Positions 45,751 through 49,403 of a stretch of 64,000 bases of DNA are shown here, piece after piece. The stretch is from Thermocrinis sp. GTDB taxonomy: Bacteria > Aquificota > Aquificia > Aquificales > Aquificaceae. Location: NCBI GenBank assembly GCA_028276475.1, contig JAPYWH010000005.1:1-64000 (forward strand), read 5' to 3'. Under the pieces are notes generated by a model. That model was given only the letters and a program-made list of their open reading frames with translations, searched no databases and was not told the origin of the DNA. A program made the position numbers and the translations under genes. Numbering within the stretch: position 1 is the stretch's first letter; each line of letters starts with the position of its first letter.

Positions 45751-46605
45751 TCACACTGCGATCTTTACTGCCTGTTCTTTGCCTTCAAAACCTGCTATAT
45801 AAAGCCTCAACATCTTGGCACATCTACTTAAATTCTCCTTTAGCTCCGTATCCATAAGCTCTGCAGGATGGTTAAGGTAGAAAACAACCAAGGCACTGCC
45901 CTCTTCTAAACCCACTGGCACAGAAATGGTCAAACTGCCTTCGTCTATAAGGCACTCTTTTACAGAACCCTCCTTCAAAGAAAAAACTTTTATAGCTTTT
46001 AGCTTGAACATCTCCTTCACACCCTTAAGATATTCCTCCGGTCCATTGCTGTCAAGCAATTCCAATAGTTTAAGTAGCATTTCCTTCTGCCTTTTTTCCC
46101 TCTCAAGGACCGAAAGTTCCTCTTGAAGGCTTCTGTATGCCCTCCTCAGTTCCAAAAAATACCTTCTATCCTTCTGAAGGCTCCTAAGCAACTCTACAGA
46201 AGAAGGAGAAAGACCCAACGCCAAAGTTAAAGGAAAAACCAAAAGCCCCTTTAAGCCAAAGTTATAAATGCCAAGGGTAGTAGCGGAAAGAACAGATATA
46301 AAGAAAGGTAAAAGATTTTTGGGAAAGCTATAGAGGGAAGGCACCAAAAGGGAAAAAATAGCCAAAGGCTCTCCCGAAAGTAAAGCCAAGGGTATAAGGA
46401 AGAAAAAGTCTATGTAATCGTTTAGCCTTCTAAGTTTGAAAGAGTAAAAATAATTCACCAGGGCAGTAGAAAGATAAAGGGAAGATATAACCACTATCAC
46501 CGCCTTTTGGGTGTATCCCGGAAGGTAAAGGAGGGCATGGAGGATAAAAAACATAAAGAGCAAAAACCTTAAAAAGGTGATTAAAAACACCTTGTTTAGC
46601 CACAC
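45751..46605 (-). CDS. membrane protein with coiled coil and GAF-like C-terminus
   Basis: I do not recognise a specific family. From a GTG at 46605 the product is 284 residues: about five hydrophobic helices (residues about 1-135), a coiled coil (RSLQKDRRYFLELRRAYRSL onward, about 140-190) and a C-terminal alpha/beta part (LTISVPVGLEEGSALVVFYL) that looks like a GAF-type sensory domain without a kinase. The plan recalls membrane sensors. The GTG is preceded by TATAAT 9 nt upstream; a longer frame to 46671 runs through the divergent gene. TusA-DUF3343 follows after 10 bp. Confidence 0.65.
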   Translation of the reverse strand: MWLNKVFLITFLRFLLFMFFILHALLYLPGYTQKAVIVVISSLYLSTALVNYFYSFKLRRLNDYIDFFFLIPLALLSGEPLAIFSLLVPSLYSFPKNLLPFFISVLSATTLGIYNFGLKGLLVFPLTLALGLSPSSVELLRSLQKDRRYFLELRRAYRSLQEELSVLEREKRQKEMLLKLLELLDSNGPEEYLKGVKEMFKLKAIKVFSLKEGSVKECLIDEGSLTISVPVGLEEGSALVVFYLNHPAELMDTELKENLSRCAKMLRLYIAGFEGKEQAVKIAV

Positions 46606-46610
46606 AGTGC

Positions 46611-46620
46611 TAATATTATA
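46611..46620. promoter_or_regulatory. interlocked divergent -10 boxes at 46605/46627
   Basis: Minus-strand TATAAT (46615-46620) ends 9 nt before the GTG at 46605. Plus-strand TGC-TAATAT (46611-46616) or TATTAT (46614-46619) ends 10 or 7 nt before the ATG at 46627. The two start codons are 21 bp apart, so both promoters occupy the same DNA. Confidence 0.5.
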
Positions 46621-46626
46621 TCCTTG

Positions 46627-47544
46627 ATGGAAAAGAAGATAAACATAAGCCTCCTTTTGGAAAGCTTCCACAATTTGGAGAAGGCTTACGTAGACCTGAA
46701 AAAGCTTATTTCTTTAGGCAAAGAAGAGTTTGTTAAAAACAAACTTATCCAAGACAAGGTTAGGGTAGATTTCAACTTAGCCTTTGAAAGCTGTATGAGA
46801 CCCTGTAGGCATCTTTCGGTGGTTTTTGGTCTAAAGACCTCTTCAAAGGATTGTTTGGTAAAACTTGGAGAGAAGGTGGGCTACGAGGACCTTGAAACCC
46901 TCCAAGCCTTTACAGATTTTTATTTTAAATACAGGGACCTGAAAGAGTCGGTCCAGCCGGAGGAACTATACGATTTCTTGGAAAAGAACCTACATGTTTT
47001 TAAGGATTATGCAAGGGCGGTGGTAGAGTATGTTAAACAAACCACTGGCAATTATCTTCTCATAGACTTTGAACTTCTAAAGGAAAAGGCAAAGTTTGTT
47101 AAGGATTCTGTGAATAAAATAAACTTCGTTTTATCAGTAGGCTTGGAGGAATTCAAAAAAAAGCCTATGTACCACGACAGGGTCAAGTATTTTTATCAGG
47201 TGGCTTACGATTCCCTCTTTGACATTTGCAAACACCTTGCACCGAAGTTTGGCATAAAAAAATTCGGTGATGATTGTCTTTTAAAGATGGTAGAGGGCGG
47301 TATAATCTCTCCTCAGTATTACCCAGTTCTGCTTAAAATGATGAACCTAAAAAACAAGATTATAAGCACTTGGGAGATAGAACTGGAAGACTTATATGAA
47401 GAGTTAATGGAACTCAAAGATCATTTTGAACCACTACTAAAGGAAATATCCTCTTCTCTCAAAAGCCTGTTAGATAAAATCGCCAACCATCAAAAACAAC
47501 TCCAACAAAACAGCCAAGGGCAAGGAAAGGACCAAAGGGAATAG
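46627..47544 (+). CDS. tandem HepT/DUF86-like protein without catalytic motif
   Basis: A 305-residue all-helical protein made of two homologous halves about 140 residues apart: around 31-125 (GKEEFVKNKLIQDKVRVDF, CRHLSVVFGLKTSSKDCL) and around 172-270 (GLEEFKKKPMYHDRVKYFY, CKHLAPKFGIKKFGDDCL). Each half has the HepT (DUF86) layout: an early helix, a C/A-x-x-H segment, and a final helix with EELYDFLEKN or EDLYEELMEL. The catalytic RxxxxH motif of HepT ribonuclease toxins is missing in both. No MntA nucleotidyltransferase partner is nearby. The C-terminal tail (QKQLQQNSQGQGKDQRE) lies opposite the prepilin peptidase gene. Confidence 0.72.
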   Translation: MEKKINISLLLESFHNLEKAYVDLKKLISLGKEEFVKNKLIQDKVRVDFNLAFESCMRPCRHLSVVFGLKTSSKDCLVKLGEKVGYEDLETLQAFTDFYFKYRDLKESVQPEELYDFLEKNLHVFKDYARAVVEYVKQTTGNYLLIDFELLKEKAKFVKDSVNKINFVLSVGLEEFKKKPMYHDRVKYFYQVAYDSLFDICKHLAPKFGIKKFGDDCLLKMVEGGIISPQYYPVLLKMMNLKNKIISTWEIELEDLYEELMELKDHFEPLLKEISSSLKSLLDKIANHQKQLQQNSQGQGKDQRE

Positions 47545-48208
47545 CAAAGTTCATGCTTTTGTGTTTTATCAGCGTAGGAAGCACATAAAGGAGCCCAAAG
47601 AGGGAGCCCAAAAAGACCGCACTAATCACACCCCATATGCCCGTCCAACTACCTATAAGAGCCATAAGCTCCACATCTCCAAACCCAAGCCCCTCAAACT
47701 TTCTGACTTTTTTGTAGTAAAGGTATATAAGTAAAAAGGGCAAAGCACCCGCCAATATTCCCAAAAGGCTCTCGTAAAGGCTAAAGTCCTCCCTAAAGAC
47801 GGAGGCAATCACACCAAGGACTGTTCCACCCAACATCAAGGGCTCCGGTAGGCTAAAGGTATCCCAATCTATCAGGCTAAGCACCAGCAGTAAGGAAAAG
47901 AATACATAAAGCCCAAGGGCGGTAATACTAAAGCCCCATTTGTAATAGGAGAGAACCGCCAGAAAACCGCTAAAAGCCTCCACAAGAGGATATCTGATGG
48001 ATATTTTGGCAGAGCAATTTGGACATTTTCCCCTCAAAAGGATGTAGGAAATTATTGGGATGTTGTTATACCACTTTATGGGTGTTTTACAGATTGGACA
48101 GTGGGAGGGAGGATTAACAATGGACATACCCCGAGGGATTCTGTATATGAGCACATTGTAAAAGGAACCAAGCACCGCACCAAGCAAAAAAAGGAAAATG
48201 TAAATCAT
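47459..48208 (-). CDS. pilD: prepilin peptidase (type IV leader peptidase, A24)
   Basis: A 249-residue membrane protease and methyltransferase that processes type IV prepilins and pseudopilins. N-terminal zinc-like Cys motif CPICKTPIKWYNNIPIISY, then CPNCSAKISIRYPLVE, and the two catalytic Asp in SLIDWDTFSLP (about residue 120) and GLGFGDVELMALIG (about 175, the GxGD motif). About seven helices. It overlaps the convergent HepT-like gene by 86 bp. No pilin genes are in the window. Confidence 0.94.
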   Translation of the reverse strand: MIYIFLFLLGAVLGSFYNVLIYRIPRGMSIVNPPSHCPICKTPIKWYNNIPIISYILLRGKCPNCSAKISIRYPLVEAFSGFLAVLSYYKWGFSITALGLYVFFSLLLVLSLIDWDTFSLPEPLMLGGTVLGVIASVFREDFSLYESLLGILAGALPFLLIYLYYKKVRKFEGLGFGDVELMALIGSWTGIWGVISAVFLGSLFGLLYVLPTLIKHKSMNFAIPFGPFLALGCFVGVVFDGWRFYLTGF

Positions 48209-48330: not shown

Positions 48331-48870
48331 TTACTCTTTGGGCTCTCTCTCCATAAATTCTCTAACCCAAGGCTTGTATTCCATGATTTGTTCAAAGGTA
48401 TAAGGGCACTCCTGTGGAAAATCCTTCTTTGTTGGTAGTTTGCCCTTGAAATAGGCTTTGACTAACAATGCGTTTTTAGGGTTTTCAAACCAGCTAACAA
48501 GACGTGAAATAGCAGATTCCCAAGCGGACTGTAGAAACTCCCACTCCTGCGCCTTTTCCTTTAAAGATGGACTTTCTTTGAATATTTCTTCTATTTCTTC
48601 CCTTGCGATGTTTATGCTGTCAATCCAATCCATTCCCACATCAGGACTATATCTAAAGTGTTCCCACTTGTAAAGATGTTCCTTAATAACCGCCATATAA
48701 CTCCTCACACTCTTACGCAAGCTTTTTCCCATATCCTCCATCTCCTCCAGAAGGTTCTCCCAATCTACGAAACCATATTCTCTGTTTTTGAGAAGTCTGA
48801 GATTTTCCTGCACCCACAGATAAAAGTCCTTTTCATAAAGTTCCTTTAGGCTTTGGGTCGTTTGCCTCAT
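48331..48870 (-). CDS. DUF29 family protein (copy 2)
   Basis: A 179-residue DUF29 protein, family common in cyanobacteria and found in Aquificales, function unknown. It begins RQTTQSLKELYEKDFYLWVQ and has WENLLEEMEDMGKSLRKSVR and HLYKWEHFRYSPDVG. It is clearly homologous to the neighbouring upstream gene along its whole length. I use the ATG at 48870 by analogy with that gene, although the frame is open to 48891. Predicted helical and soluble. Confidence 0.85.
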   Translation of the reverse strand: MRQTTQSLKELYEKDFYLWVQENLRLLKNREYGFVDWENLLEEMEDMGKSLRKSVRSYMAVIKEHLYKWEHFRYSPDVGMDWIDSINIAREEIEEIFKESPSLKEKAQEWEFLQSAWESAISRLVSWFENPKNALLVKAYFKGKLPTKKDFPQECPYTFEQIMEYKPWVREFMEREPKE

Positions 48871-48887
48871 GGGTTTAAATATAAACC

Positions 48888-49403
48888 TCACTCTTCAAGC
48901 CATGGTTCGTATTCCATAATTTGTTCAAAGCTATAAGGACATTCTTGCGGAAAATCTTTTTCTGTTGGAATTCTTCCTTTGAAATATAACTGAACCAACG
49001 CTTTGTTTCGTGGAAGCTTAAACCAATCTATTAACGCATGAACTCCCTCTTCCCATGCTTCTTGTAGGACCTCTCTCCCCTGGGTCCTTACTCTCAAGGA
49101 TGGGTGCTTTCTAAAAATTCTTGCTACCTTTCTCCTGTGAGTATAAATAGTTTCTATCCAATCGTGTCCCATATCCTGACTATACCTAAAATTCTCCCAC
49201 TTATACAGATGCTCCATAATTACCGCCATATAGCTAACCATAGCATCATAGTGCCTTTGCCCCATATCCTTTATCTCCTCCAACAGGTTATCCCAATCCA
49301 CAAGGTCATACTCTTTGTTTTTGAGAAGCTTGAGGTTCTCAATTACCCAAAGGTAGAAGTCTTTTTCGTAGAGTTCTTTTAAGCTTTGGGTTGTTTGTTC
49401 CAT
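48888..49403 (-). CDS. DUF29 family protein (copy 1)
   Basis: A 171-residue DUF29 protein beginning EQTTQSLKELYEKDFYLWVI, followed by DWDNLLEEIKDMGQRHYDAM and ending FKGRIPTEKDFPQECPYSFE. Copy 2 lies immediately downstream (17 bp from stop to its ATG). The ends of the two proteins are nearly identical, the middle less so, typical of an older tandem duplication. Function unknown. Confidence 0.85.
   Translation of the reverse strand: MEQTTQSLKELYEKDFYLWVIENLKLLKNKEYDLVDWDNLLEEIKDMGQRHYDAMVSYMAVIMEHLYKWENFRYSQDMGHDWIETIYTHRRKVARIFRKHPSLRVRTQGREVLQEAWEEGVHALIDWFKLPRNKALVQLYFKGRIPTEKDFPQECPYSFEQIMEYEPWLEE

What the first reader, a model, noticed from the sequence alone, without database searches (positions are those of the whole stretch)
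46627..47544. Tandem-duplicated HepT-like protein with both active sites missing
Two halves align over about 100 residues (DCLVKLGEK/DCLLKMVEG, CRHL/CKHL, EELYDFLEKN/EDLYEELMEL), each with HepT/DUF86 layout. Catalytic RxxxxH is absent in both, and no MntA antitoxin gene is adjacent. HepT proteins act as dimers, so a single-chain pseudo-dimer without catalysis could have become a structural or regulatory protein.
Basis: partly seen in the sequence, partly recalled or inferred. Interest (0 to 1): 0.55.

Follow-up and report, generated by a model that had tools for sequence, protein, structure and literature searches.

The report
Disarmed double HepT core protein
A bacterial toxin-type RNA-cutting domain was doubled into one chain, lost its known cutting residues, and is now carried by nearly every member of two families of hot-spring bacteria, which suggests a toxin scaffold turned into an ordinary cell component of still unknown task.

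Summary
ORF 46627-47544 (+, 305 aa) is two HepT/HEPN domains in tandem: the halves align far above chance (SW 118; shuffles 34.3 +/- 6.4, 0 of 1000), profiles from 41 orthologues match at E 1.8e-30, and both halves of the model match HEPN structures (Z 18.2 and 15.9). R-x4-H-x-Y is gone: in 72 aligned halves the His and Tyr columns never hold His or Tyr, and helix 2 lost its conserved Arg and Glu; Arg of R-x4-H survives mainly in one half type. No MntA is adjacent.

New here: not a decaying toxin. The tandem is found in 62 of 64 genomes of its family and 35 of 41 of a second (six of the 97 partial or broken), was not seen in 286 other genomes, is under purifying selection (dN/dS 0.06-0.12), and persists in complete genomes without any MNT-type nucleotidyltransferase match. 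It has its own invariants (D-R-x2-Y, D195, C201, H203, C217). No conserved operon, except a 2-TM coiled-coil neighbour in part of the second family.

Best reading: a domesticated, non-catalytic HEPN binding scaffold (MtlR-like in style). Ligand unknown; pseudo-dimer geometry not shown (pTM 0.54-0.58).

The parts
46627..47544 (+). tandem HepT-like protein gene, ATG start (TTG 46624 also possible), 305 aa plus stop
   Evidence: orthologues
46627..47064 (+). N-terminal HEPN half (residues 1-146), the more diverged half in this family
47065..47541 (+). C-terminal HEPN half (residues 147-305) with a low-confidence tail after about residue 283
46753..46815 (+). N-half helix 2 stretch, residues 43-63 (D43..E54..C60-R61-H62): degenerate form of the family motif
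47176..47235 (+). C-half helix 2, residues 184-203: family-specific D184-R185-x2-Y188, D195, C201, H203; HepT has R-x2-E-x3-E here
46921..46944 (+). place of the lost R-x4-H-x-Y in the N-half (aligned residues Y99, D104, K106; alignment here less certain)
47350..47370 (+). place of the lost R-x4-H-x-Y in the C-half (K242 for R, S247 for H, T248 for Y across a one-column gap)

Best explanation
A HepT-type toxin gene was duplicated and fused in (or before) the common ancestor of two families of Aquificota, lost its RNase and AMPylation residues, and was kept as a vertically inherited, single-copy gene. Shown: homology of the halves, HEPN fold of each half (predicted model), loss of the known catalytic residues in both, new invariant residues, near-universal presence in two families, purifying selection, persistence without MntA-type genes or other HepTs. 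Inferred: that the protein is a non-catalytic scaffold which binds a partner (a protein or a structured RNA) through the surface that used to be the RNA-cutting cleft, much as the HEPN-superfamily regulator MtlR binds HPr. Not known: the ligand, whether duplication happened once or twice, and whether the two halves pack on each other like a HepT dimer.
For: Halves homologous; HEPN fold. 28 canonical HepTs (from 26 loci of the phylum, picked by their R-x4-H-x-Y) have R 28/28, E 27/28, E 28/28 in helix 2; in the tandem the first is Y (55 of 55) or V/I/A/T/S (17 f1 N-halves), the second is Glu in 0 of 72, and the catalytic column is His in 0 of 72, while D-R-x2-Y is invariant in 3 of the 4 half types (55 of 55). 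Presence 62 of 64 and 35 of 41 genomes; the 8 misses are assemblies of 200 or more contigs. dN/dS 0.06-0.12 in 6 pairs. Single-contig genomes G009, G051 and G057 hold the tandem gene but have no PF01909 or PF18765 match; in G009 and G057 it gives the only PF01934 match. No match in plasmids, phages or viral contigs. MtlR precedent: PMC6763467 (abstract, passages).
Against: No ligand, operon or expression evidence in family f1; neighbours differ from genus to genus. Arg is kept at the catalytic place in 18 of 19 f2 C-halves, 4 of 19 f2 N-halves and 2 of 17 f1 C-halves, and invariant polar residues remain, so some activity cannot be excluded. The third helix-2 acid is kept as D or E in 68 of 72 halves, as in active HepTs. 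One of 41 loci (L079, genome G077) does have an MNT/HEPN pair directly upstream. The arrangement of the halves is not resolved.
Confidence: 0.62

Rival explanations
1. Still an enzyme: the cleft was re-tooled and the tandem-specific D-R-x2-Y / D195 / H203 residues form a different, possibly asymmetric nuclease or other active site.
For: Invariant polar residues in the old cleft helix in 29 of 29 aligned proteins. The Legionella HEPN works through helix-2 residues Q44/E47 with Mg2+, not R-x4-H. Arg is kept at the catalytic place in 18 of 19 f2 C-halves.
Against: The probable equivalents of Q44/E47 (HepT R and E) are lost: Glu in 0 of 72 halves. The four half types have different residues at the R-x4-H columns.
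Confidence: 0.17
2. Non-catalytic substrate-binding partner, in trans, of a stand-alone MNT-type nucleotidyltransferase (HI0073/HI0074 style).
For: HEPN domains without R-x4-H are known as domains of nucleotidyltransferases (PMC3710099, passages). 42 of 64 f1 genomes have PF01909 matches.
Against: Among f1 genomes with the tandem gene, G009, G025, G026, G040, G043, G051, G057 and G062 (96% complete or better) have neither a PF01909 nor a PF18765 match at E 0.001. The AMPylated Tyr is gone.
Confidence: 0.06
3. Dominant-negative immunity or decoy against HepT toxins of the same cell.
For: Same fold as HepT; the window genome and many others carry further PF01934 genes.
Against: Kept in single-contig genomes where the tandem gives the only PF01934 match (G009, G057), while the number of PF01934 matches in f1 genomes with the tandem runs from 1 to 8 (G022, with a fragment of the gene, has none).
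Confidence: 0.06
4. Decaying or chance-preserved toxin remnant with no function.
For: Both catalytic motifs lost.
Against: dN/dS 0.06-0.12, 75 of 75 genomes in under 200 contigs, family-specific invariants.
Confidence: 0.02

Closest known systems
HepT toxin of HepT/MntA (type VII) toxin-antitoxin systems (PF01934, NF047751)
   Same: Fold of each half, sequence profile, retained positions around D-I-C-x-H shared with the long-type HepTs.
   Different: Two domains in one chain; R-x4-H-x-Y absent; helix-2 R and E absent; no MntA in the window; near-core gene of two families; below the NCBIfam cut-off (47 of 60 bits).
YutE of Bacillus subtilis (1ylm)
   Same: Best structural match of the N-half (Z 15.9).
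   Different: Single domain; 11% identity over the aligned residues.
MtlR (HEPN superfamily regulator)
   Same: HEPN-superfamily protein, often without the catalytic motif, acting by binding a partner, HPr (PMC3710099 and PMC6763467, passages).
   Different: Another family (no MtlR match in the Pfam scan), homodimer of single domains, mannitol operon context.
HEPN dyads: Csx1 (MJ1666 type), Swt1 (PMC3710099, passages); Cas13 (recalled)
   Same: Two HEPN domains in one chain; the Swt1 dyad is listed as inactive.
   Different: Other HEPN families, fused to further domains.

Membership tests
HepT-like domain family (PF01934) | profile score above the curated cut-off | tested here: met
   whole 61.4 bits, C-half 44.4, cut-off 23.5; N-half alone falls short at 21.6; 29 of 29 aligned orthologues match at E 0.001 or better
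HepT-like domain family (PF01934) | HepT/HEPN fold | tested here: met
   both halves of the predicted model
HepT/MntA type VII toxin-antitoxin system | R-x4-H-x-Y in the toxin | tested here: not met
   His and Tyr columns 0 of 72 halves; window residues Y99/D104/K106 and K242/S247/T248
HepT/MntA type VII toxin-antitoxin system | adjacent MNT gene with GSx10DxD | tested here: not met
   window neighbours; variable neighbours in 41 loci (one f2 locus, L079, has an MNT/HEPN pair just upstream); MNT-free genomes
HepT/MntA type VII toxin-antitoxin system | NCBIfam HepT equivalog cut-off | tested here: not met
   47 bits, cut-off 60
HepT/MntA type VII toxin-antitoxin system | RNase toxicity neutralised by AMPylation | not testable with these tools
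   needs bench work
MtlR family | MtlR profile match | tested here: not met
   no MtlR family in the Pfam scan up to E 1
Single-chain HEPN pseudo-dimer | two HEPN domains in one chain | tested here: met
Single-chain HEPN pseudo-dimer | halves packed as in the HepT dimer | tested here: inconclusive
   pTM 0.54 and 0.58

The most novel reading that the evidence does not exclude
A toxin of a toxin-antitoxin system was doubled, disarmed and turned into a core, probably important, cell protein at the base of two families of thermophilic Aquificota, with the old RNA-cutting cleft re-tooled into a new asymmetric binding or active site (D-R-x2-Y, D195, H203), a job not described for any HEPN protein in the papers seen here.
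Probability: 0.25. Interest if true: 0.75.

Novelty: new variant of a known kind. Interest (0 to 1): 0.5.

Why it matters
It is a clean case of a toxin scaffold becoming a vertically inherited gene: an uncharacterised gene found in every genome of two families that is assembled in under 200 contigs (75 of 75), with active HepT/MntA relatives in the same phylum for comparison. It gives a defined, testable family to ask what inactive HEPN domains do, and whether HEPN dimers can be frozen in a single chain.

Tried and rejected
Operon inference: in f1 the neighbours change between genera, so no partner is named. In part of f2 a 2-TM coiled-coil gene (about 417 aa; three copies scanned, no Pfam family over its cut-off) lies directly upstream; 21 of 136 genomes match it and in 18 of the 21 it is next to the tandem gene by coordinates. 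The other three: G066 and G069 have no tandem match; G040 (f1) is a weak 73-residue match elsewhere in the genome. So it is an optional partner. A PADLOC match of it to LeoBC (E 5e-5) was set aside as coiled-coil similarity.

One or two duplications: the tree joins f1 C-halves with f2 N-halves (95/90), and the N-halves of the two families resemble each other least (hhalign 87.9%, E 3.2e-6, against 2e-29 for the C-halves); AU tests do not reject shared (p 0.33-0.38) or independent (p 0.24-0.42) duplications; long branches. Undecided.

Divergent version in a third family of the order (f3, 0 of 7): weak matches (E 0.03-0.09) in 4 genomes read by eye as peptidyl-tRNA hydrolase; rejected.

Metal site from the invariant Cys/His: Cys is also found at these places in 3 active long-type HepTs, so no claim. 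Net charge: pI medians 8.8 and 8.9, window protein 7.0; too weak to argue RNA binding. Promoter scan 46500-47650: no sigma-70-like site. Structures that cover both halves (alpha-catenin; rmsd over 8 A where about 200 residues align) were not taken as relatives.

Literature: ten searches; the listings shown (several capped) held no paper on a tandem HepT or on this gene in Aquificota; the library is open-access only. The A. aeolicus tags searched were my guess from gene order.

Full report
What is there. The gene at 46627-47544 (+) encodes 305 residues from the ATG. The window lies in a 1.30-Mb genome in 68 contigs; the nearest named relatives are Thermocrinis MAGs at 93-96% identity. Family letters below are the tool's: f1 holds these and, Aquifex and Aquificaceae records; f2 is probably Hydrogenothermaceae (recalled from genome sizes, not from a call).

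Two HEPN domains. The halves align at 31% over 77 residues (E 2.8e-13) and score 118 against 34.3 +/- 6.4 for 1000 shuffles. Half profiles from 41 orthologues match at 99.8%, E 1.8e-30. PF01934 recognises the whole (E 8.7e-17) and the C-half; the N-half alone is just under the cut-off. All 29 proteins of alignment A2 match PF01934. The model (pLDDT 85.8) repeats the same helix order at an offset of about 141 residues. The C-half matches HepT at Z 18.2, rmsd 1.6; the N-half matches B. subtilis YutE at Z 15.9, rmsd 2.4. Foldseek alone gave no E at or under 0.001; its best match is a HEPN toxin (E 0.014, probability 1.00). Relative packing of the halves is unresolved: pTM 0.54, and 0.58 with the tail cut.

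Active site. The nearest single-domain relatives found in the phylum (four, 140-151 aa) keep R-N-x3-H-x-Y and sit next to an MntA with GSx10DxD. In 72 tandem halves (36 of 41 proteins; five near-copies left out) the His column never holds His and the Tyr column never holds Tyr. Against 28 canonical HepTs from Aquificota, picked by their R-x4-H-x-Y (so that motif is 28 of 28 by choice), helix 2 R (28/28) is Y in 55 and V/I/A/T/S in 17 halves, E (27/28) is Glu in 0 of 72, and the third acid is kept as D or E in 68 of 72 (N in 4). The lost R aligns with R46 of the HepT changed in entry 7ae9 (residue count). The helix-2 Q44/E47 site of the Legionella HEPN, which works without R-x4-H (PMC11586414, passages), has the same spacing as the lost R and E; that equivalence is my inference. 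Results against a fully dead site: Arg stays at the catalytic place in 18 of 19 f2 C-halves, 4 of 19 f2 N-halves and 2 of 17 f1 C-halves; 8 of 72 halves hold some R-x4-6-H string, seven of them elsewhere in the chain and one (L056 N-half) four residues past the aligned place.

New constraints. Invariant in 29 of 29 aligned orthologues: H62, C76, F176, D184, R185, Y188, D195, C201, H203, C217. D-R-x2-Y is fixed in f1 C-halves (17/17) and f2 N- and C-halves (19/19, 19/19), and degenerate in f1 N-halves. dN/dS among four close relatives is 0.06-0.12 (six pairs).

Distribution. Phylum search: 102 of 136 genomes match the protein at E 0.001. With the family profile in 391 genomes, matches of tandem type lie only in f1 (62 of 64) and f2 (35 of 41). 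Six of these 97 are partial or broken (G008, G020, G022, G059, G091, and G093 with stops inside). All 46 f1 and 29 f2 genomes in under 200 contigs have a match (G059 only its C-half, G093 broken); all 8 misses are in 200 or more contigs (counted by hand). No hit in plasmids, phages or viral contigs.

Independence from toxin-antitoxin systems. f1 genomes G009, G025, G026, G040, G043, G051, G057 and G062 (96% complete or better) hold the tandem gene but no PF01909 or PF18765 match; in G009 and G057 the tandem also gives the only PF01934 match. The window genome itself does have an active-type HepT on another contig (C12, R-x4-H-x-Y) with MNT matches beside it. One of 41 loci, L079 (genome G077), has an MNT/HEPN pair (by eye) directly upstream of the tandem gene.

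Neighbourhood. In f1 nothing is conserved around the gene between genera beyond scattered shared neighbours. In f2 a gene read by eye as lpxC lies within six genes in 14 of 20 loci, and a 2-TM coiled-coil gene is directly upstream in 18 of the 21 genomes that match it.

Known ground. Inactive HEPN domains and HEPN dyads are described (PMC3710099: passages, part of the abstract among them): Swt1 and Csx1 dyads, MtlR as a non-catalytic regulator. MtlR binds HPr as a homodimer (PMC6763467: abstract and passages). HepT/MntA chemistry: PMC7641770 (passages). The Aquificales comparison PMC4227106 had no hit for HepT, DUF86 or toxin (find only). No paper found here describes a tandem HepT in Aquificota.

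Conclusion. A real, conserved, disarmed double HepT; most likely a domesticated binding scaffold (0.62). Novelty: new variant of a known kind. The ligand, essentiality and packing of the halves are open.

Noticed in passing
L144, L145 (family f3 genomes G110, G105): An MNT gene (PF18765/PF01909) and a HEPN gene (PF08780), with overlapping ends, sit between two RAMP genes of a type III CRISPR csm cassette, one with a Csm4 C-terminal match (L144; L145 read by eye).
   Followed up: partly
window 48331-49403: Two adjacent DUF29 paralogues (E 1.6e-32 and 1.7e-33) on the minus strand, just past the prepilin peptidase gene (by eye).
   Followed up: no
L063:6855-8108 and other f2 loci: Lineage-specific 2-TM coiled-coil protein gene directly upstream of the tandem gene in f2 genera g12, g17, g18; no Pfam family over its cut-off.
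   Followed up: partly
window 46624-46671: The tandem gene's 5' end overlaps the longest ORF of the divergent membrane-protein gene by 48 bases; one of the two start codons may be further in.
   Followed up: no
L079 (f2 genome G077): A small MNT gene and a HEPN gene (95 and 135 aa, by eye) lie directly upstream of the tandem gene in this one locus.
   Followed up: no
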